From Skermanella mucosa (GTDB taxonomy: Bacteria; Pseudomonadota; Alphaproteobacteria; Azospirillales; Azospirillaceae), in the NCBI RefSeq assembly GCF_016765655.2, contig NZ_CP086106.1, positions 6,222,501 through 6,286,500 on the forward strand: a stretch of DNA of 64,000 bases, given 5' to 3'. Under the pieces are notes generated by a model. The model did no database searches. It saw only the letters and a program-made list of their open reading frames with translations, and was not told the origin of the DNA. Every line of letters starts with the position of its first letter. Position 1 is the stretch's first letter. This document shows, piece after piece, positions 23,188 through 58,905 of this stretch. The translations under genes and the position numbers were made by a program.

Positions 23188-23225
23188 CCGGCTTCCGTCC
23201 GGCACCACGACAAGGTCGTTCCTCC

Positions 23226-49404: not shown

Positions 49405-49463
49405 CGCGGCGCGCGGGTCGGGCGGGCAGCGTTCTACGTGGCAAGATCCACATCAACACGTCG

Positions 49464-52247
49464 TCACCGCGGCATCCGCAGCACCACGTCGGCACTCTGC
49501 CGCTCGTGCGTCGTGGCGCACGGCGCGGGAGGTTGGCTGCCTTTGATGTCCCCGTTGCCGTCCGTGACGGTTCCCAGCGGCATCAGCCACGGCAGCGGAT
49601 AGATCCGTGCCGGAAGCTCGTTCCGGAAGCGGGCGAGGTCGTCTTCGCCATGAAAGAAGAACAGGAGCTGCCAGCCTTCCGGCAGCAGGCGCACCACCTT
49701 CCCGATCCCCCGGGCGAGAACCGTCACGGTCTGCTCGTCCATGTTCTGCAAGGGATCGTCGAACACCAGCAGGCGGAACGGATTGTTGGTGCCGGGTGCG
49801 CACAGCAGGAAGAGCGCGACGGTGAACAGGTTCAGTTCGGCCGTGTTCAGCCGCAGGTGCGCGCCGTCTTCGCCCTCCTGGCTGAGGCTGAGGCTCTGCG
49901 CGCCCCTCTCTCCCGACCGGCGCTTGAGCCCCAGCGTCGCGTATCCCCAGCGGGCCGGCGTGAACAGCGTCAGCAACTCGTCCAGGGCATGGCTCAGCAG
50001 CGGCGTTTTCCCCCCGGCATCGCCCTTCTCCGGCAATACCCTGTTCAGGAAGCTCCTTTCCATGGTCTCCTGGGCAAGCGACAGCTCCTCGACTGCCTTG
50101 TGCAGGGCACGGAGCTTCTTCAACGCGTCGGCGGGGGATCCCCGTCCGGATTGCCGGGACAGGTTGGACGAGGAAGCGGCGAGTATGCCCAGCTCCTTCC
50201 GGATCGCCTCGGCCCACGCGGGTTCGCCGATGGCGAAGGTGCCGCACCGCCGGCGTTCGCCCAGCCGCAAGGCTTCCGTGATGGCTTGCCCCAGCGGCTG
50301 TTCCGGTTCCGCCGGTCCGCCGGGGCCGATCTCCCCGGCCTCGCCGTGCGGCAGCCAGTCGCCGACCTTGTCCAGCGCGTCGCACTCGGCATCGGTCAGC
50401 ATGGGAACGGGCATGCTGTCCGCGGTCGGGTTCCCAGCCGGCCCGGCGGTCGGCAACTGCTGTTCGTACTCCGCGACCTGCCGGGACCATCGTGCTTCCT
50501 GCTCGCGCAGGTCGCCGATCAGCGTCGGCGACCTGCTCCCGGCCCCCGCGATCGCCACGAGCCCGCCCGCGTTGTCCGTACCGGGAAAGCGCCACCCGTT
50601 CCGGCCGGCCAGCTCCAGCGCTTCCAGGATTTCACGCTGCCGCCGGACAAGATCCTTGAACGCAAGGGCATGGAGCCAGCGGTTCAGGGACGCTACCGGG
50701 TCTCCGGTCGTGCGGCGGGAGACCGGCAGCCAATCGTCGAACGCCTTCCGCCCGAGGGCGTCATGGGCGATGCCGATATCTATGGCGATGTCCGCGATAC
50801 GCCGCGTCAGGGCTCGCAGGGGCTTCTCGAGCTCCCGAAGCGTTTCCGCGAACGCTTCTTCCGACAGTGGACCGGAAGCCAGCCGCCTGACCGGATCGGC
50901 AAGGTCCGGTTCTATCCGTGTCAGGACGATCAGCTCGTCCAGTGGAACAGGCAAGCAAAGCTCCGCCCCTTCACTCCCCGTCCGGCAGTCGAACAGGGGA
51001 CCGGCGACCCAAGCCAACGCCTTCGAAAGATCACTGGATGGAGGCAATTCCGCGGGCCGTTCCGTCCCGCCTGAAAGCTGCCTGGCCAGATTGTCGGGCA
51101 GATCTTTCCAAGCCACTTCCGCACTTGCCCGCGCCTCTTCAAGGGCTTTGATGGCGGCGTGTTCCGCCGGAAAGAAACTCGACAGGAAATAAGAGGCTCT
51201 GCCTCGGTCGTCGCTGTTTGTCAGTCTGTCCATCGCCATTTGGTCGAGGCGGAAAGCACCGGCACGAAATTGGAGCGACGACTTTTTCTTTTCGGCACGA
51301 ATGTCGATAGTCCGAACCTGCTGATCAGAACTTCCTTCCGCCTGTGTGGAGAGCACGATGCTTGCTTGTTGTCGTGCGGTAACTCCTTCGGTTTTATTTA
51401 CCCGTGATGCTGCTGGTGCCCGATGTTCCACGATCTCGGCAAGGTCGAAGCCGGCAAGCCTTTCCAGGTCGCCAAGCAGGGCGAACTCCAGGGCTTCGAC
51501 GAGGGAGGACTTGCCCGCGCCGTTGCCGCCATGCACGATATGGATGCCGGTGCGAGCTTGGTTCGCAGAGTCTACGGGCAGATCGAACGTCAGCGTGCGT
51601 TCTCCGGGAACGCGCCAGTTCCTCAATGTCAGTGATCGGATGTTCTCCAGCGGCGGCTGGTTGCCGGCGACTGCCGATGCCTGCTCCTCGAACCATTGTC
51701 GCGTACTCGTCAGCAGCCAGCAGAAGGCGCGCCTCACCTCTCCATCTTCGTCGATACCATGCTGCGGCCTCTCGCCGAAACGCAGCAGGCTGATCCCGAA
51801 ACCATGCATGTGGGATGCGCTTCGTCGGATCGCGACCAGTGTGTCCCCGACGCGTCTTTGTACGGACGGTTCGGCGGGCGGAAGAACCAATACGAGTTCC
51901 ACCGTCAGCGGCAGGGGGTTTTCCTTTTCCGACCTCCCATGCTTACGGCCCAGCACCAGATGGCGGGTGAAGGCCGCATGCTCGATCAGCCGGCGAATCT
52001 CTGTCTTGGCCGTCAGCGGGGTTAATTCGTGGACCAGTCCCAAGGTCCCCAGAAAGGGATCCAGGACCATCAGGTCGGCCTGATGATTGAACTGTCCTCC
52101 GATGACCACTCTGGCCCCAGCCAGCGAAACAGGGTGGTTCGCCTTGAGAAGCTCCTCCAAAGTCTCGACCGGCGTTACCGAATGGGTCGATCGAAGCACC
52201 TTTTCAAGACGTTTGATCGTGCTGGATGTCTGCTCGGTATCGGTCAT
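49464..52247 (-). CDS. SMC/RecF-like ATPase, third gene of the TIR-SIR2 operon
   Basis: 927 residues. Residues 1-200 form an unfamiliar N-terminal domain (VVIGGQFNHQADLMVLDPFL ... LVLVLPPAEPSVQRRVGDTL). The ATPase head begins near 200 (LRNWRVPGERTLTFDLP) with Walker A HGGNGAGKSSLVEALEFAL at about 239-257. Long helical middle segments follow. The second half head carries LNTAELNLFTVALFLL (signature region, degenerate) and Walker B LLVFDDPLQNMDEQTVTVLA near 850. This is the RecF/SMC/ABC-ATPase plan used by anti-phage proteins such as those of Lamassu, Septu and retron-linked systems. ATG 52247 overlaps the SIR2 gene's stop by four bases (ATGA). Its role could be sensing of DNA or its ends; this is inference. 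Confidence 0.75.
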   Translation of the reverse strand: MTDTEQTSSTIKRLEKVLRSTHSVTPVETLEELLKANHPVSLAGARVVIGGQFNHQADLMVLDPFLGTLGLVHELTPLTAKTEIRRLIEHAAFTRHLVLGRKHGRSEKENPLPLTVELVLVLPPAEPSVQRRVGDTLVAIRRSASHMHGFGISLLRFGERPQHGIDEDGEVRRAFCWLLTSTRQWFEEQASAVAGNQPPLENIRSLTLRNWRVPGERTLTFDLPVDSANQARTGIHIVHGGNGAGKSSLVEALEFALLGDLERLAGFDLAEIVEHRAPAASRVNKTEGVTARQQASIVLSTQAEGSSDQQVRTIDIRAEKKKSSLQFRAGAFRLDQMAMDRLTNSDDRGRASYFLSSFFPAEHAAIKALEEARASAEVAWKDLPDNLARQLSGGTERPAELPPSSDLSKALAWVAGPLFDCRTGSEGAELCLPVPLDELIVLTRIEPDLADPVRRLASGPLSEEAFAETLRELEKPLRALTRRIADIAIDIGIAHDALGRKAFDDWLPVSRRTTGDPVASLNRWLHALAFKDLVRRQREILEALELAGRNGWRFPGTDNAGGLVAIAGAGSRSPTLIGDLREQEARWSRQVAEYEQQLPTAGPAGNPTADSMPVPMLTDAECDALDKVGDWLPHGEAGEIGPGGPAEPEQPLGQAITEALRLGERRRCGTFAIGEPAWAEAIRKELGILAASSSNLSRQSGRGSPADALKKLRALHKAVEELSLAQETMERSFLNRVLPEKGDAGGKTPLLSHALDELLTLFTPARWGYATLGLKRRSGERGAQSLSLSQEGEDGAHLRLNTAELNLFTVALFLLCAPGTNNPFRLLVFDDPLQNMDEQTVTVLARGIGKVVRLLPEGWQLLFFFHGEDDLARFRNELPARIYPLPWLMPLGTVTDGNGDIKGSQPPAPCATTHERQSADVVLRMPR

Positions 52248-54691
52248 GACAGGCCACCTTTGGTATCCGCATCGGGCAGGTCCTCGTGCTTCACCGCTTC
52301 GACCATTTTCTCGTACCAAGCCTTGCCATCTTTGGGCACGCCGTCCTTTTCCTTGCCAGAGCTGCTTGCCCAAGCCCATAGGGACTCAGCATCGGGCGTC
52401 AGGTCGTCTCCCTTCCCCCGGCTCCAGGGAAGACGGTCGAGGGACAGGTTCCAGGTGATGCGGCGGCGCGGAAGCCCGTCGTTCTCCACCGTGGCGGAAA
52501 CCGGCTCGTCCAATTCGCGGTGGCGGATGACAAGGCGCACCGGGGAGGGGCAGTCCTTGTCGAGCGAAAGGTCCACGACCGGAAAATCGCCCGGGGAAAC
52601 TTCGATCCACGGTCCGGGAGGATGCCAGTGCTGGGGGTCGCACCAGTCACCATTCTCCCCGACAGACATAAGGGTAACGGCCCGGCGCAAAGCCAGTTCG
52701 ACCACCACGCCCCAAGCTGTCCAGCCGAAATTCTCTCCGGCGGCGAAGTACCAAGGCGTATTACGCAGCGATCTGATTTCGTCGGTGCCGACATATCCTT
52801 TGCGCAGCCGGAGCCCCGCCAGCGCGAATTCGCGCAGCAGCCGGGGGTGGAAATGCGACGTCCAGCCCGTCACCCGCTCCAGGGCGAATCTGGCATGCTC
52901 GGCGGCGGAACGGATGACTGCTTTGTCTTCGCTCTGCGTGGACGCGACATCCATCACGGACTTGCATTCCGCCACGCACAGCTTGTCGAAGGATTCGATG
53001 ATCCGCTTCACCGCCTCGCTTTCCACGCTGACCTCCTTCATCAGCAGGGTGGCGATGCTGCGCAGTTCGCTTTCCAGGGCTTGCCGTTGACGGAGCCGGT
53101 AGACGCGGTGGAACAACCACGACAGCAGTTCATCCATATCCGGGAAGCGGCAGTGATCGTCATTCCGGAAGAAGAATTCCAGGTAGTTCGGATGCTCCGT
53201 CAGCGACACGCGGTTCACGCCGATCGCGTGGCTGGCCGATCGCAGGACTTCCAGCGCGTGGAACTCCCGGCTCTGCGCGCCGGCCAGGAAGAAAGCGGGT
53301 GCATCCGCCTGCCGGCGTTCGCCTGTTTCGGCGAACGCATGACGCTTGAAACGGCTTGCCATTTCCTCGTAGACGGTCCGGAACGTGTCGTGCAGCACCG
53401 GGTCGGCGGTGCTGTAGCCGCAGAAAACCATCGTGCGGGTCCGCAGGAGCGTCAGCAGGAGGTCACGCGACCATGAGTCCTGCCGCCAGTTCTGGATTTC
53501 GCGAAAAGTGAACACCAGCGACGACAGAACCTCCGGCAGGGTACCGCTTTCCTCCGAAGGTCCGTCGCAGGCATGGCGATAGGTCTCGGCACAGCCATGG
53601 ATCTTGACGATCGAGGCTGCCTGCTGGCCGCCCTTGAGTGTCGGGGGCGAACCGATGGGCTTTTCCTCCGGCTGCGGCTTGCCGGAAACCCGGTTCCGGG
53701 ACGGACGGTAATAATACTGGTGTGCCCGGGTGATCCGTTCATAGCTTGGCCATCGGGTTGGCGGAAAGCAGGGCGGACCCGCTCCCGGGTCGGCGTTCGG
53801 ATCGGCGGGGCGATCAGACGCTGCTTCCCGGGCGACCGCTTCCTCGCCCGCCGGACCGCGGCGCGGCTGGAACCCGGCAAGCCGGTAGGCGCCCTCCAGC
53901 AACAGGTCGAAATTCGTGGTGATCAGCGTCGGGCACAGTCCTTCGCGTGCCAGCCGGGCGAGCAGATGGTGGCGGGGCAAAAGGCGCCCATGGTAGCTGT
54001 CGATGACCTTTTGCAGGTCTCGGTTGTCCGGGTCGCCGCCCATGACCTCAGGCTGTCTGAAGCCCATGGCATCAAGAAACAATGCCTTGCCGCGCGATGG
54101 CGAGGCCAACGAGCGGAGACGGTCCAGATTGACCGGCTCCAGTTCCGACGTTTCATCGCTGTTTTTCAGAAGGTCGAGGAAGAACCGGTCGGCAACGGAG
54201 AGTTCGGCCTGGATCGTCCGCTTCGCCTGCCCGGTCATGGCCTGACCCAGCATATGATCCAGCATTTCGTCGTAGGCGTTGCACATCCAATCATTGAACA
54301 GGTAATATTCGCGCGCCAAAGTTAAAATAATATTGTTCTTAAGTTTTTCAATTTGTTTATCTGCTTTTACTTTGGCCCACGTATTGGGTTCGAATTGCTC
54401 TGCAATCAGACCGCATTCCTTTACGTGCTTGTCCAGGTTGAAAGTCGTCATCAGGCCCCTGTGCAATGCTTTCGCATTGTCACGAGCCTTTTCATGGTCC
54501 ACAAGCCACCGGATTTCACCGGTCAGCACCCGATGCAGCGCGCAGAACCGCGCCAGCAACCGGCTCACCAACCTTTTGGCGCTGTTCTTCTCCGTATCGA
54601 GCGAAAAGCCGGCTCCGACGAAGAACACGACTTCTCCCGCCAGGATGCGATCAGCCAGATCGTCGATCCGCTCAAGCAGGGGCTGCTTCAT
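52244..54691 (-). CDS. SIR2-like domain protein, second gene of the operon
   Basis: 815 residues. The NAD-binding SIR2 fold is seen through VVFFVGAGFSLD (GAG-x-S, about 21-32), LCPTLITTNFDLLLEGAYR (TTNFD, about 252-270) and IVKIHGC (K-x-H-G, catalytic His about 365), with MVFCGYSTADP after it. Inserts in the SIR2 core are large, including a Pro-rich loop. The C-terminal 400 residues are helical then beta-rich and unrecognised (GYVGTDEIRSLRNTPWYFAA ... NGDWCDPQHWHPPGPWIEVS). SIR2 proteins in phage defence degrade NAD+ upon activation (ThsA, SIR2-HerA, SIR2-APAZ). A stretch at 54300-54400 is AT-rich, suggesting a mosaic origin. Overlaps both neighbours by four bases. Confidence 0.85.
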   Translation of the reverse strand: MKQPLLERIDDLADRILAGEVVFFVGAGFSLDTEKNSAKRLVSRLLARFCALHRVLTGEIRWLVDHEKARDNAKALHRGLMTTFNLDKHVKECGLIAEQFEPNTWAKVKADKQIEKLKNNIILTLAREYYLFNDWMCNAYDEMLDHMLGQAMTGQAKRTIQAELSVADRFFLDLLKNSDETSELEPVNLDRLRSLASPSRGKALFLDAMGFRQPEVMGGDPDNRDLQKVIDSYHGRLLPRHHLLARLAREGLCPTLITTNFDLLLEGAYRLAGFQPRRGPAGEEAVAREAASDRPADPNADPGAGPPCFPPTRWPSYERITRAHQYYYRPSRNRVSGKPQPEEKPIGSPPTLKGGQQAASIVKIHGCAETYRHACDGPSEESGTLPEVLSSLVFTFREIQNWRQDSWSRDLLLTLLRTRTMVFCGYSTADPVLHDTFRTVYEEMASRFKRHAFAETGERRQADAPAFFLAGAQSREFHALEVLRSASHAIGVNRVSLTEHPNYLEFFFRNDDHCRFPDMDELLSWLFHRVYRLRQRQALESELRSIATLLMKEVSVESEAVKRIIESFDKLCVAECKSVMDVASTQSEDKAVIRSAAEHARFALERVTGWTSHFHPRLLREFALAGLRLRKGYVGTDEIRSLRNTPWYFAAGENFGWTAWGVVVELALRRAVTLMSVGENGDWCDPQHWHPPGPWIEVSPGDFPVVDLSLDKDCPSPVRLVIRHRELDEPVSATVENDGLPRRRITWNLSLDRLPWSRGKGDDLTPDAESLWAWASSSGKEKDGVPKDGKAWYEKMVEAVKHEDLPDADTKGGLS

Positions 54692-57600
54692 GCCCGGTCG
54701 CTCCGCATCGTGCGCCGTCCGCGGCTACGACGGGACACCCCTGACGACGCATAGGCTTCCAATGATTCTCTGAGGCGTTCCAGGGCAGCTCCATTGACGC
54801 TTTCCATCCATCCACGCCACAGCGGATCGGGTTGCGCCTGCGGCAGTCCGGCGGCAAGCTGTTCCATGATGTTGTTCAGCCAGGTTCCGCGATGGCGAAC
54901 CGGTGGTTTGAGGGTATCCAGGGCGGCCGTCACCGCCCCTGGCTTGGCGAGAGTCGCCAGTTCCGCCGCAGGCAACCGTCCGTCCAGCACCAGTAGAAAT
55001 GCCAAGTGCAACGGATCAATGACGTGTGACTCCGGTTCCTCCGCCGGTTCTCCGCCTTCGTGCAGCCACTTTGCAAGCCAACGGATTTCAGGGTGATCAG
55101 GGTAGAGAAGGCGGCCTAGTTCGTCTATCGATGCCTGTAGGCTTGCCACCGCATCAGTGTTCCCCGCGACGGCACGGCAAGCGGCAACCAAACCTTTAGC
55201 CGCCCAGGACCGCCAATGATTTGCGCCAAGCCGCTCTTCCAAGCCCGCCTGTGCAGCTTCACCGTTTTTCTGTGCCAACTCCAATTCATTCAATTCAAGT
55301 AATATGCGGGCAAGATGGTATTGTGAGGCGAATGTGTCCGGATGATCGGGACCCAATTTTCGGCGCCGAACGTCCAGAGCGGTTCCTGCTAGTTCACGTG
55401 CCGCTGTCAGATCGCCCTGCATCATCAGGGACACTGACAAATCATTCATGGCGCTCAGCGTATCTGGATGCTCGTCGCCCAGCACCCGGTGGCTGAGCGC
55501 CAGCACCTGCTCCTCCAGCGCCCGGGCGCCGCCGTGGTCGCCTTGTGCCCAGAGCGTTCCGGCCAGATTACCGATGCTGCCCAGGGTGTCGGGATGCTCG
55601 TCGCCCAGCACCCGGCGGCGGAGCGCCAGCACCTGCTCCAGCAGCGCCCGGGCGCCGCCGTGGTCGCCCTGTGCCCCGAGCGTTGCTGCCAGATTGTTCA
55701 TGCTGGTCAGGGTGTCGGGATGCTCGTCGCCCAGCACCCGGCGGCGGAGCGTCAGCACCTGCTCTTCGAGCGCCCGGGCGCCGCCGTGGTCGCCCTGTGC
55801 CCCGAGCGTTGCTGCCAGATTGTTCATGCTGGTCAGGGTGTCGGGATGCTCGTCGCCCAGCACCCGGCGGCGGAGCGCCAGCACCGGCTTTTCAAGCGCC
55901 CAGGCACCGCCGTGGTCGCCCTGTGCCCGGAGCGTTTCGGCCAGATTGTTCATGCTGGTCAGGGTGTCGGGATGCTCGTCGCCCAGCAGGCGTTTACTTG
56001 CTTCGAAGGTTCGGCGGTAGTCCGCTTCTGCGTTGGCGTAAGCTCCCCGCTCAAAATTGAACCGCCCAAGCCACGACAGGAGCATGGCGGCCGGGGCGTC
56101 CGGCAGGTCCCCGGTCAGGGCTCGGGCGTGGGGGACCAGGGGCAGCAGGGCGGCATGGTTGCGGATGTCTTCGGCCTTCTCCATCGCCTCGGTCAGCGCC
56201 GCCACGACGGCGCCGCGCATCGCGGGCGGCGGGGCACCCATGTGGAAACGGAAGGTGCGGCTGGCCAGCACATGGACAGATACGGCGTCGCCGGCATTGT
56301 CCCCGTTTCCCGGAATGAGTTCGGCCAGGGCCTCCCGCATGGCCGAATTGACGGCGCGGGTGGCCTCAGCCAACCCGTCATCGTCTCCGGAAAGCCGGGC
56401 GAAGACATCAGCCACCAAGGATCGCGGGATCGGTACCGGGGCCAGCAGGGTGGCGAAATGCAGGAAATGCAGGCCCGCCAAGTCCAACCGTTCGATGCTG
56501 CCCAGCAGGGTAGCCGCGACCTGCCGAGCATGGCCCGTCGGCAGGTCGTAGGCCAGTTCAGCGGCTAATTCCGTCGCGTCCTTGGTGGGGTCGCGCAGCC
56601 GGTCGCGGAAATTCTCGTAGCCCAGCATCTCAACGGCGGCACCCGCCACGTCGACCGCCAGGGCGTGGTTGCCCAGGAGAGCCAGGATCTCCCGTGCTGC
56701 CGCCTTTTCCGCGTTGGTGACCGGAAGCCTTCGCTTGGTCAGAAGATCATGGGCTTCGGTGTCCGACAGCAGCCCCAGCCGGTAGACGAAGCCCGCCCCA
56801 CCTAGTCCGGTGCCTCGGGTGGTGACCAGGGTGGCGCCGTTGTCGGTGGGTGCTCTCCAGGCGTTCAGGTCAGCCGGGCCGGCGTCCGGCGGCAGGTCGT
56901 CCACGATCCACAGGTAGCTGTCCATTTCAGCAAGCTTGACTTTCAGCGCGCCCTCGAGCTCGTGCGGTCCCAGGCCGGCGGTCGCGATGCCGAGGTTCCC
57001 GGCGAAGCCCTGCCGCTGCGCGCCCAGGTCCTGCCCCCTGGCGGCGTTGAGCCAGAAGATGCCGCCGGGATAGGCCGCGCAGAAGCGCCGGGCGTATTCC
57101 TCCGCTAGCAGGGTCTTGCCGATGCCGCCCATGCCCTGCACCTGGACCAGCCCGACGCTCTCGCCGGTTATCAGCGTGATCTGGTTCTTCGACAGACGCT
57201 CGTCGATCCGCCACATGTCGGGAAAGCGGCCGACGAACCGGCTGGAGCCGGCATGCGGGTTGCCTCCGTGCCAGTGCGGGCCGCCGAGCGTCCGGATCTC
57301 GCCGAAGCTGCCGGCAAGTCCCGAAAGCCGGTCGGCGACCCGGCGGGCCAATTCGCCCGTGCGGACACCCCGCGCATTGACTAACCTCTTCGCAAGCATT
57401 TCAGCCGGCTGGAGATGGCCGGTGCCCGGTTCCGGGTTCAGAGCCAAGATGCGGCGCTCCACCATTTGGCCGTTGGGTGACTCTTGGCGGGCGGCGATAA
57501 TGGCGGCGGTCAGCTCCCACTGGCAAGCGCGGCGGGTCGGGTAAATTGCCGAGTACCAAGCCACCAGCATCCGGGCGCAGCCAAGCCCCTCCACGATCCG

Positions 57601-57759
57601 CCGCACGATGGAGTCGCCGTCCGTGATCTCCGTTTCGTCATGGAAGACGCGGAGGTTTCGGCTCTTCAGCGCCTCAATGACCGGCAGCACCGCAGCGCGG
57701 TCGGCATAGGCGAAGCTGAGATAAATGTCATACTTCGCGTCCATTTCGCTTTCGCACAT
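54688..57759 (-). CDS. TIR-STAND ATPase-TPR protein, first gene of the operon
   Basis: 1023 residues. Residues about 8-140 are a TIR domain: YDIYLSFAYADRAAVLPVIE, VFHDETEITDGDSIVRRIVE, then ACQWELTAAI with Glu 82 in the place of the catalytic glutamate of NAD-cleaving TIRs. A STAND/NB-ARC-like ATPase follows with FVGRFPDM, Walker A QGMGGIGKT (about 208-216), Walker B LWIVDDLP, and TLVTTRG as sensor. From about 559 to 900 lie kinesin-light-chain-type TPRs (LGDEHPDTLTSMNNLA). Plant NLR-like order: TIR effector, switch, sensor repeats. The stop overlaps the SIR2 gene (ATGA). Start is ATG 57759 or ATG 57741; neither has a strong ribosome-binding site. A role in phage defence is inferred. Confidence 0.87.
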   Translation of the reverse strand: MCESEMDAKYDIYLSFAYADRAAVLPVIEALKSRNLRVFHDETEITDGDSIVRRIVEGLGCARMLVAWYSAIYPTRRACQWELTAAIIAARQESPNGQMVERRILALNPEPGTGHLQPAEMLAKRLVNARGVRTGELARRVADRLSGLAGSFGEIRTLGGPHWHGGNPHAGSSRFVGRFPDMWRIDERLSKNQITLITGESVGLVQVQGMGGIGKTLLAEEYARRFCAAYPGGIFWLNAARGQDLGAQRQGFAGNLGIATAGLGPHELEGALKVKLAEMDSYLWIVDDLPPDAGPADLNAWRAPTDNGATLVTTRGTGLGGAGFVYRLGLLSDTEAHDLLTKRRLPVTNAEKAAAREILALLGNHALAVDVAGAAVEMLGYENFRDRLRDPTKDATELAAELAYDLPTGHARQVAATLLGSIERLDLAGLHFLHFATLLAPVPIPRSLVADVFARLSGDDDGLAEATRAVNSAMREALAELIPGNGDNAGDAVSVHVLASRTFRFHMGAPPPAMRGAVVAALTEAMEKAEDIRNHAALLPLVPHARALTGDLPDAPAAMLLSWLGRFNFERGAYANAEADYRRTFEASKRLLGDEHPDTLTSMNNLAETLRAQGDHGGAWALEKPVLALRRRVLGDEHPDTLTSMNNLAATLGAQGDHGGARALEEQVLTLRRRVLGDEHPDTLTSMNNLAATLGAQGDHGGARALLEQVLALRRRVLGDEHPDTLGSIGNLAGTLWAQGDHGGARALEEQVLALSHRVLGDEHPDTLSAMNDLSVSLMMQGDLTAARELAGTALDVRRRKLGPDHPDTFASQYHLARILLELNELELAQKNGEAAQAGLEERLGANHWRSWAAKGLVAACRAVAGNTDAVASLQASIDELGRLLYPDHPEIRWLAKWLHEGGEPAEEPESHVIDPLHLAFLLVLDGRLPAAELATLAKPGAVTAALDTLKPPVRHRGTWLNNIMEQLAAGLPQAQPDPLWRGWMESVNGAALERLRESLEAYASSGVSRRSRGRRTMRSDRA
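55456..56085 (-). repeat. Five tandem 126-bp repeats encoding the TPRs
   Basis: Exact 126-bp periodicity: units begin at 55456, 55582, 55708, 55834 and 55960, each marked by GGATGCTCGTCGCCCAG. Each codes 42 residues (one kinesin-light-chain TPR). Central units differ from one another at only a handful of positions, clustered in the codons for the L-E-Q/E-E-Q/E-K-P segment. Such DNA-level identity points to recent expansion or gene conversion. Confidence 0.9.
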
Positions 57760-58120
57760 CCCACAGCGAGGTCAACCACTGCGCGTGCAGAATAGTGAAT
57801 CTGGCGGAATTACGCGAGAAAAGATATTCGATGAAGATCCATAAAATCGGCAAACACATTAACACGCGGGCGAATTCGTTCAAGAATCCGACCGCCACAC
57901 GTGTCAGTGGCGGCCGAGCCGAAGAGCGGGAACTCCTAGGCTCGGCCTGACCATGAATGCCTCTGGTGAAAGGTCAACATCCATGGCTAACCAACTACCT
58001 AGCACAAACGGAGTGCTCGCGCTCCGGTCATTGTTACCCCCGCCGCGGCGACCTCGTTCGTCGCGGCGGGGGGACCCCTCCGGGGTGGTGTCGTCCGGCG
58101 CGATCCGGCGAGGTTGACCC
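57760..58120. other. Intergenic region upstream of the TIR operon, hairpin-rich
   Basis: 361 bases with no gene I trust. The half next to the TIR gene (57780-57870) is AT-rich and should hold the operon promoter on the minus strand, though no clear -35/-10 pair is seen. Three perfect inverted repeats follow: CCGCCAC/GTGGCGG (57892-57898, 57907-57913), GGCCGAGCC/GGCTCGGCC (57912-57920, 57939-57947), and CCCCCGCCGCG/CGCGGCGGGGG (58037-58047, 58062-58072). The first two share bases and could form alternative structures. Confidence 0.55.
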
Positions 58121-58610: not shown

Positions 58611-58673
58611 CGGACTTCCGAAAACGAAAACGCCGGCGACCCGGTGCAGGGATCAACGAAACCGCCGATGCAC

Positions 58674-58771
58674 CGTAGGTCGGCCTCGGCCGAAGGCCGA
58701 CGCCGACAGCGTGCCCGGAGCGTTGATGCAGGTCGTCGGAGTTCGCCCTGACGGGCGAAGGCCGACCTACG
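58674..58771 (+). repeat. R1 palindromic repeat, complete copy 4
   Basis: 98 bp with ends CGTAGGTCGGCCT and AGGCCGACCTACG as inverted repeats. The internal hairpins are TCGGCCGAAGGCCGA and TTCGCCCTGACGGGCGAA. It has the same orientation as copy 1 and is opposite to copy 3. The remaining parts of the gap 58611-58905 show nothing else. Confidence 0.85.
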
Positions 58772-58905
58772 CCGAGACTCGAAGAACGTCCATCACCCGC
58801 TTCGGGTACGGCCGCTCGATAAGCCTTCAATCCTAGGAAACTTGACCAAAATCCTACGTCGTGGTAAGGAACCAATTCCTCCTCCCTGGTTCTGAAGGCC
58901 CCGCC

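What the first reader, a model, noticed from the sequence alone, without database searches (positions are those of the whole stretch)
49464..57759. Three-gene TIR-STAND-TPR / SIR2 / SMC-like ATPase operon: candidate new anti-phage system
Seen: three minus-strand genes with ATGA overlaps at both junctions. Their products carry a TIR domain with a conserved Glu joined to a STAND-type P-loop ATPase and TPRs; a SIR2 fold with GAGxS, TTNFD and KxHG motifs; and an SMC/RecF-like ATPase with intact Walker A and B. Known: TIR and SIR2 proteins in Thoeris, SIR2-HerA and NLR-like systems consume NAD+ or make NAD-derived signals on infection, and SIR2 plus SMC-type ATPase pairs occur in Lamassu-like loci. 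Inferred: the TIR-STAND protein senses a phage product through its TPRs and its signal or complex triggers the SIR2 NADase, with the ATPase as a second sensor or regulator. Having both NAD-directed folds and two ATPases in one coupled operon does not match a system I can name.
Basis: partly seen in the sequence, partly recalled or inferred. Interest (0 to 1): 0.92.

Follow-up and report, generated by a model that had tools for sequence, protein, structure and literature searches.

The report
Modular SIR2–ATPase operon with swappable receptors
A rare three-gene bacterial operon, probably an anti-virus system, keeps a constant pair (a SIR2-type NAD enzyme and a DNA-repair-like ATPase) and swaps the front half of its first gene through a shared 85-residue tail, which suggests that bacteria exchange infection sensors or killer domains like cartridges.

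Summary
In detail: 49464-57759 (minus strand) holds TIR–STAND–TPR, SIR2 and an ABC/SMC-like ATPase, coupled by two ATGA overlaps. Five other genomes carry the same order, three of them of another class with different flanks. Its N-terminal part is TIR-STAND-TPR, TIR-WD40, a small TIR-like domain, or an MBL-like domain, always ending in the same ~85-residue tail. In 398 phylum genomes, four carry SIR2, ATPase and tail, and no other gave a credible match to any. No PADLOC model fits at full length. SIR2 and ATPase are distant kin of SIR2–small protein–ATPase operons of Lamassu/ABC-3C-like layout. The GC3 is foreign; one sister genome lacks the operon at the same site, another carries a NACHT gene there. 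Best reading: a mobile abortive-infection system in which gene 1 docks by its tail onto the SIR2–ATPase core and licenses NAD+ destruction. Defence, NADase activity and docking are inferred, not shown. New variant of a known kind.

The parts
54688..57759 (-). Gene 1: TIR – STAND (NB-ARC-like) – TPR – C-terminal tail (putative docking domain), 1023 aa
   Evidence: orthologue and module-swapped homologues
57310..57744 (-). TIR domain (residues 6-150) with Glu82
   Evidence: Pfam TIR_2; solved-structure alignments; alignment
56620..57246 (-). STAND/NB-ARC-type NTPase (approximate bounds), P-loop GMGGIGKT at residues 209-216
   Evidence: (E 5.9e-4, below cut-off), orthologue (E 1e-7)
55210..56082 (-). 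TPR array (approximate bounds); 42 residues fewer in the Skermanella orthologue
   Evidence: alignment
54748..55029 (-). ~85-95-residue C-terminal tail shared by the six gene-1 proteins (core PLW followed by an aromatic and M/V)
   Evidence: leave-out test; genome search
52244..54691 (-). SIR2 gene, 815 aa; Asn260 and His365 invariant in 6 of 6; C-terminal half unassigned
49464..52247 (-). ABC/SMC-like ATPase with extra N-terminal domain, 927 aa
51657..52247 (-). N-terminal ~197-residue domain of the ATPase; only weak and mixed structural matches, no conserved nuclease motif
51507..51530 (-). ATPase Walker A GGNGAGKS
49752..49772 (-). ATPase Walker B LLVFDDP
49419..57848 (.). Stretch absent from the sister genome G348, where 55 bases lie between the two aligned flanks

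Best explanation
A horizontally acquired abortive-infection system. The SIR2 protein is the executioner (NAD+ hydrolysis or a related NAD reaction). The ABC/SMC-like ATPase, with its N-terminal domain, is the constant partner that holds SIR2 silent or helps to activate it. Gene 1 is a plug-in input module: an N-terminal sensor or signalling part (TIR-STAND-TPR here) docks through its shared C-terminal tail onto the SIR2–ATPase core and, on infection, licenses the SIR2. Shown: three-gene linkage, exchange of the N-terminal part on a constant tail, conserved SIR2 and ATPase motifs, foreign composition, presence/absence at one site. Inferred: that it is defence, that SIR2 consumes NAD+, that the tail binds the core, and the order of events.
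For: Six operons (window, L002, L007, L022, L023, L024) have gene 1 – SIR2 – ATPase in that order; 11 of 12 junctions overlap by four bases and one by a single base, though 6 of the 12 start codons were chosen by me inside longer frames. SIR2 Asn and His, and ATPase Walker A/B, are conserved in 6 of 6. Gene 1 varies: between L023 and L024 SIR2 is 58% and ATPase 48% identical, yet BLASTP of gene 1 (E<=1e-3) matches only the last 85 residues (E 6e-14); both start with a TIR, followed by STAND-TPR in one and WD40 in the other. Leave-out HMMs find the tail in each of six held-out gene 1s (E 4e-15 to 4e-4) ahead of 2823 background frames, best 0.016. SIR2 profile A5 (built from window, L002, L007) hit 4 of 398 phylum genomes; ATPase profile A7 hit the same 4; tail profile A13 hit those 4 plus two weak matches in unrelated frames. 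A7 and A13 contain members from these genomes, so what they add is the lack of orphans. GC3 is 0.745-0.764 against 0.954-0.956 in flanking GlnD and GDH. The site is empty in G348 and holds a NACHT gene in G460. The SIR2 model's first Foldseek matches are defence SIR2s (KomBC, ThsA), none below E 0.001.
Against: No functional data. Nothing shows that the tail binds SIR2 or the ATPase. Plain BLASTP does not detect the tail in every pair: no gene-1 match for window–L024, L007–L023 and L022–L024, and window–L023 and L022–L023 match only elsewhere. 4 of 5 TIR-bearing gene 1s keep the aligned Glu (at 13-18% identity for the three distant ones), so the TIR could be an effector rather than an input. 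No relative in viral contigs, none at full length in plasmids, none in phages (SIR2 only; gene 1 was not searched in either), so mobility rests on composition and the variable site. The genome samples scored few candidates per genome (two), so diverged copies may be missed. The SIR2 model is weak (mean pLDDT 62).
Confidence: 0.47

Rival explanations
1. Lamassu-like logic: the ATPase is the sensor of foreign DNA or replication structures, and both SIR2 and the gene-1 N-terminal domain (TIR or MBL) are effectors released together; the tail docks interchangeable second effectors.
For: Lamassu effectors are described as variable N-terminal enzymes (TIR and SIR2 among them) on C-terminal domains that possibly dock, around an SMC-like LmuB taken as likely sensor (PMC10586767: section 9; passages). 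The MBL-like domain of L007 gene 1 matches a PADLOC LmuA model (E 1.1e-11). SIR2 and ATPase are distantly related to SIR2–small protein–ATPase operons. Four of five TIRs keep the aligned Glu.
Against: STAND-TPR and WD40 extensions on the TIR are typical of ligand sensing (established for APAF-1-like STANDs; PMC7159879 passages). The aligned Glu is absent in L022, and the L007 MBL has Glu where I expect the first metal-binding His (motif recalled; sequence).
Confidence: 0.3
2. Thoeris-like signalling: the TIR makes an NAD-derived nucleotide that binds and switches on the SIR2 protein.
For: TIR plus SIR2 in one operon is the ThsB/ThsA pairing; Glu82 is present; the SIR2 model's first Foldseek matches include ThsA; weak ThsA and ThsB profile matches.
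Against: ThsA-type SIR2 has a C-terminal SLOG/STALD sensor (recalled); none appeared in the Pfam and NCBIfam scans of P0002. One operon (L007) has no TIR in gene 1. The aligned Glu is missing in L022.
Confidence: 0.1
3. Not defence: a stress-triggered NAD+ depletion or regulated-cell-death device, or a genome-maintenance regulator.
For: No viral carriage or full-length plasmid match found; no functional test; rare.
Against: TIR, STAND, SIR2, MBL and SMC-like ATPases are all known from defence systems; foreign GC3; presence/absence and a different STAND-type gene at the same site in sister genomes; L024 lies beside a Cas3-like helicase frame and phage-like portal and terminase frames (by eye).
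Confidence: 0.13

Closest known systems
Lamassu / ABC-3C / DdmABC (LmuA–LmuC–LmuB)
   Same: Operon of an effector with variable N-terminal enzyme and C-terminal docking region plus an SMC/Rad50-like ATPase; SIR2 and TIR effectors are described there, and an MBL-type domain matches an LmuA model
   Different: ATPase has a ~200-residue N-terminal domain, no CxxC hook (0 of 6), Asp rather than Gln after the Walker B Asp (6 of 6); no small middle gene (6 of 6); SIR2 and a second effector/receptor gene together; the best LmuB match is strongest around the P-loop, residues 234-324
SIR2–small protein–ATPase operons (L008, L030, L031 here)
   Same: Homologous SIR2 (hhalign E 3.7e-23) and ATPase (E 1.1e-12); tight coupling
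   Different: Separate middle gene of 217-248 residues with no detectable similarity to the ATPase N-terminal domain (prob 1.4); SIR2 His replaced by Asn (KINGC/KVNGC) in 3 of 3; no gene 1 seen; L030 lies among annotated type III-B cas genes, L031 beside cas10- and cmr1-like frames by eye
Thoeris (ThsA SIR2-SLOG + ThsB TIR)
   Same: TIR plus SIR2 pair
   Different: No SLOG domain detected; extra ATPase; TIR replaceable by an MBL-like domain
Bacterial NLR-like / STAND proteins with TIR effectors
   Same: Gene 1 is TIR–NB-ARC–TPR, an NLR-like layout
   Different: Carries a C-terminal tail shared with non-STAND proteins and sits in an operon with SIR2 and ATPase
EAD-adaptor conflict systems (Kaur et al. 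2020, PMC7159879, two passages seen)
   Same: Small domain that links varied effector domains to a common core
   Different: The shared domain is C-terminal in gene 1; no EAD family is listed in the Pfam scan of gene 1; partners are SIR2 and an SMC-like ATPase
PADLOC candidate entries PDC-S66 and PDC-S65
   Same: PDC-S66 matches the window TIR (E 6.8e-10, residues 4-85); PDC-S65 matches the SIR2 (E 2e-5)
   Different: Single-domain matches only, not a model of this gene set

Membership tests
Lamassu / ABC-3C | LmuB-type Rad50/SMC ATPase matched along its length | tested here: not met
   Best LmuB model E 8.7e-9, two stretches, the better one at residues 234-324 of 927; other LmuB models match short P-loop stretches (best 25 of 53 families listed)
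Lamassu / ABC-3C | Zinc-hook CPxC motif (present in many, not all) | tested here: not met
   No CxxC in any of six ATPases
Lamassu / ABC-3C | Walker B Glu-to-Gln substitution (described as general) | tested here: not met
   Asp at that position in 6 of 6; feature from PMC10586767 section 9
Lamassu / ABC-3C | Middle component LmuC (lacking in some systems) | tested here: not met
   No gene between SIR2 and ATPase in 6 of 6 operons; the ATPase N-terminal domain shows no profile match to three middle proteins; structures not compared
Lamassu / ABC-3C | Effector with SIR2 at its N-terminus and a C-terminal docking region | tested here: inconclusive
   SIR2 present; C-terminal half unassigned; no LmuA among the 8 PADLOC families matching the SIR2 protein
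Thoeris | SIR2 joined to SLOG/STALD sensor | tested here: not met
   No SLOG family in Pfam or NCBIfam scans; weak ThsA match E 0.0027
Thoeris | Adjacent TIR protein with catalytic Glu | tested here: met
   Glu82; 4 of 5 TIR-bearing operons; the sixth operon has no TIR
Thoeris | TIR product activates SIR2 | not testable with these tools
   needs biochemistry
STAND/NLR-like proteins | N-terminal effector – NB-ARC/NACHT – repeats | tested here: met
   L002 and L023 gene 1 above Pfam cut-offs; in the window NB-ARC is below its cut-off with an intact P-loop; not met in L007, L022, L024
Defence SIR2 NADases | Catalytic Asn and His | tested here: met
   Asn260 and His365 invariant in 6 of 6; activity not tested

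The most novel reading that the evidence does not exclude
A previously undescribed bacterial immune chassis: a fixed SIR2–ATPase core that accepts interchangeable receptors or effectors through one new C-terminal plug domain, so NLR-like TIR-STAND-TPR, TIR-WD40, small TIR-like and MBL-like proteins are alternative cartridges of one system, related to, but outside, Lamassu.
Probability: 0.5. Interest if true: 0.85.

Novelty: new variant of a known kind. Interest (0 to 1): 0.72.

Why it matters
It would join two branches usually treated apart, NLR/TIR receptors and SMC-like/SIR2 (Lamassu-like) systems, through one small plug domain. That makes a testable rule for how bacteria exchange immune inputs on a constant killer, and gives a bait (the tail plus SIR2) to find further receptors. 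It also offers a case where TIR and SIR2 sit in one operon without a detectable Thoeris sensor domain, so which of the two acts on NAD+ can be separated by single-residue changes.

Tried and rejected
Considered and rejected: (1) membership of Lamassu, as several listed features were tested and not met. (2) Fusion of the middle component into the ATPase N-terminus: the pattern looked alike by eye, but profile comparison gave no support (prob 1.4). (3) An active nuclease in the ATPase N-terminus: Foldseek's best match is Can2 at E 0.011, followed by a mixed list (RFC, an R2 retrotransposon protein, Ulp1, then Cdn1, Mus81-Eme1 and arenavirus endonuclease among others), none below 0.001; no acidic/Lys set is conserved in the six aligned ATPases. 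(4) Tail matches in G804 and G727: contexts show unrelated or overlapping frames; called spurious. (5) Plasmid ATPase hits H1-H9 cover 6-9% of the query around the P-loop; three of the nine contexts were opened and hold a differently placed AAA ATPase.

Led nowhere: four viral-contig scans (of eight allowed) gave no relative; plasmid tblastn with P0001 and P0002, none, with P0019 one record covering 47%, of the related type; phage tblastn with P0002, none. Gene 1 was not searched in plasmids or phages. A single-protein class search found 1 of 385, the own genome, with two candidates scored per genome. Rfam scan of the window, 0 matches. The SIR2 structure model is weak. Other phyla were not searched beyond one pattern-seeded genome-contig scan that finds close relatives only (30 stretches, one relative).

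In print: ten full-text searches gave no paper whose listing, or whose passages I opened, describes this gene set. Most were seen only as listings. Seen in part: PMC10586767, section 9 and passages; passages of PMC7159879, PMC13174449 and PMC10910872. The ABC-3C classification paper (title and DOI recalled) is not held and was not read.

Corrected on checking against the calls: the tail search gave 6 of 398, not 4; A7 and A13 contain the genomes they re-find; the best LmuB match has two stretches; half of the overlapping starts were chosen by me.
Full report
THE OBSERVATION. The window carries three minus-strand genes where reported: gene 1 at 54688-57759, SIR2 at 52244-54691, ATPase at 49464-52247, the last starting inside a longer open frame. 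Domain scans confirm TIR, an NB-ARC-like STAND (below its cut-off in the window, E 5.9e-4; above it in the orthologue, E 1e-7), TPRs, SIR2_2 and an AAA_23/SMC-type ATPase. No PADLOC model fits any of the three at full length (for the ATPase the best 25 of 53 families are listed); candidate entries PDC-S66 (E 6.8e-10) and PDC-S65 (E 2e-5) match the TIR and the SIR2 alone. No NCBIfam model for SIR2 or ATPase reaches its cut-off; FxSxx_TPR reaches it for gene 1 (302 against 300 bits), its better stretch over the repeat region. Glu82 aligns with a Glu of solved TIR 7uxr. The window genome, G000, shares its genus with G461, whose contig length and coordinates identify it with the Skermanella stibiiresistens contig of L002, so the window is probably Skermanella (inferred).

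CONSERVATION. L002 has the same three genes at 80% (SIR2), 66% (ATPase) and 59% (gene 1) identity, like the window's between a glnD-like and an NAD-glutamate-dehydrogenase-like gene (names by eye), though 2.7 kb of other sequence stands where the window has a kinase/regulator pair. In the window's family, 82 genomes were searched: three carry the system (G000, G461, G413); a fourth SIR2 match, G440, is a related SIR2–small protein–ATPase type. In a 398-genome phylum sample, SIR2 profile A5, built from window, L002 and L007, matched four genomes at E 1e-6: the own one and three new ones, G518, G532 and G543. All three new loci have an ATPase of the same family and a tail-bearing gene 1 beside the SIR2. 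ATPase profile A7 and tail profile A13, which include those new members, were then run on 398 phylum genomes each (the listed handles agree between calls): A7 matched the same four, A13 the same four plus two weak matches (5e-4, 1e-3) in unrelated frames. The re-finding is by construction; the news is that no orphan turned up, with the limit that only two candidates per genome were scored. In the 48 held genomes of G543's class, three carry the system and one, G475, the related type. A single-sequence search of 385 class genomes found the own genome only. The system is rare.

MODULARITY. Window, L002 and L023 gene 1 have TIR-STAND-TPR; L024 has TIR-WD40; L022 has a 269-residue protein with a TIR-like domain (no Pfam match at E 0.01; a ThsB model E 9e-10; BLASTP to the L023 TIR E 4e-9); L007 has an MBL-like domain (Pfam below cut-off; LmuA model E 1.1e-11), with a subtilase gene upstream and a second MBL-like gene downstream. 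All six end in a related stretch of about 85 residues. No Pfam family lies over it in five of the six; for L024 only 25 of 55 matching families were listed. Window against L007 gives BLASTP E 4e-8 there, but several pairs give no tail match by plain BLASTP. HMMs trained without the test protein, and without its near relative where it has one, find each of the six held-out members (E 4e-15 to 4e-4) before any of 2823 background frames; the best background frame, 0.016, is a short frame of L022 overlapping a longer one. L023 and L024 are the sharpest case: SIR2 58% and ATPase 48% identical, gene 1 matching by BLASTP only in the tail, E 6e-14. Junction overlaps are four bases at 11 of 12 junctions and one base at the twelfth; in 6 of 12 the start was chosen inside a longer frame.

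CORE. The SIR2 G(A/S)GFS, TTN(F/Y)D and KIHG motifs hold in 6 of 6, except that L002 has Y for L right after GAGFS, outside the motif. The AlphaFold model of SIR2 is weak (mean pLDDT 62); its first four Foldseek matches are KomBC and ThsA chains (E 0.011 to 0.13), with SPARSA, DSR2, 8yhx (titled trimeric HerA) and unrelated helical proteins lower; none is below 0.001. The ATPase has Walker A, a signature-like LNTAEL stretch, Walker B with Asp-Asp, a conserved FHGEDD, and no CxxC hook. Its ~200-residue N-terminal domain is predicted at pLDDT 77; Foldseek gives a weak mixed list headed by Can2 at E 0.011 and including several nucleases of the PD-(D/E)XK kind (class recalled); no catalytic set is conserved, so at most a degenerate nuclease-like fold.

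RELATIVES. Three SIR2–small protein–ATPase operons (L008; L030, Azospirillum lipoferum plasmid; L031) are distant kin: hhalign E 3.7e-23 for SIR2 and 1.1e-12 for the ATPase, no support for similarity between their middle protein and the ATPase N-terminal domain. Their SIR2 His is Asn in 3 of 3 (aligned). Their layout resembles Lamassu/ABC-3C; LmuB models match their ATPases at E 4e-9 to 2e-18 among the best.

MOBILITY. GC3 of the three genes is 0.745-0.764 against 0.954-0.956 for the flanking GlnD and GDH genes. In sister genome G348 the flanks are 55 bases apart where the window has 8.4 kb; in G460 the same site holds about 7.2 kb with a NACHT-domain gene; in G459 the glnD- and GDH-matching stretches lie about 0.7 kb apart. 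The site is variable and was used at least once more by a STAND-type gene. No viral contig carried a relative, and no plasmid or phage record searched carried a full-length one (gene 1 not searched in plasmids or phages).

MECHANISM. The constant part with intact motifs is SIR2 plus ATPase; the changing part is gene 1 with a fixed tail. I read the tail as a docking plug and gene 1 as the input that licenses the SIR2, with the ATPase as partner or regulator. The chief rival, that the ATPase senses and gene 1 supplies a second effector, is close in likelihood: TIR and SIR2 are effector types in Lamassu (PMC10586767, section 9) and four of five TIRs keep the aligned Glu. The STAND-TPR and WD40 additions and the missing Glu in L022 tilt me to the sensor reading. 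A Thoeris-type signal is less likely because no SLOG domain was found and one operon has no TIR. Docking, NAD+ loss and anti-phage effect were not tested.

NOVELTY. No family library available here names the set, and ten text searches showed no description of it in what I saw (listed in Tried and rejected). PADLOC here dates from 2023 and most subscription papers are not held, so a later or unheld description remains possible. I grade it a new variant of a known kind: all domain types but the tail and the ATPase N-terminal domain are known and the core resembles Lamassu-like systems, but the tail, the cartridge pattern and the composition appear new.

Noticed in passing
L030 7710-16915 (Azospirillum lipoferum plasmid AZO_p2) and L031 2-8521 (G475): SIR2 – small protein – ABC ATPase operons sit beside type III CRISPR genes in two genomes of different classes (annotated cmr1 and cas10 in L030; cas10- and cmr1-like frames by eye in L031); the SIR2 catalytic His is Asn in these and in L008.
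   Followed up: partly
window 58673-58774: A ~100-base dispersed repeat with inverted ends (GTAGGTCGGCC...GGCCGACCTAC), over 30 matching places listed in each of G348 and G460, further matches in this window near 23224, 29609 and 36047; no Rfam match.
   Followed up: partly
L053 4560-7553 (G460): A 997-residue NACHT-domain protein occupies the site that holds the operon in the window: a possible defence hotspot between glnD and the GDH gene in this genus.
   Followed up: partly
L007 1806-11082 (G413): The core operon here is flanked by a subtilase with a long N-terminal region and by a second MBL-like gene, perhaps extra members of a five-gene version.
   Followed up: no
L024 5299-7557 and 14530-19924 (G532): The TIR-WD40 operon lies between a Cas3-like helicase frame and phage-like portal/terminase frames (read by eye, not scanned).
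   Followed up: no
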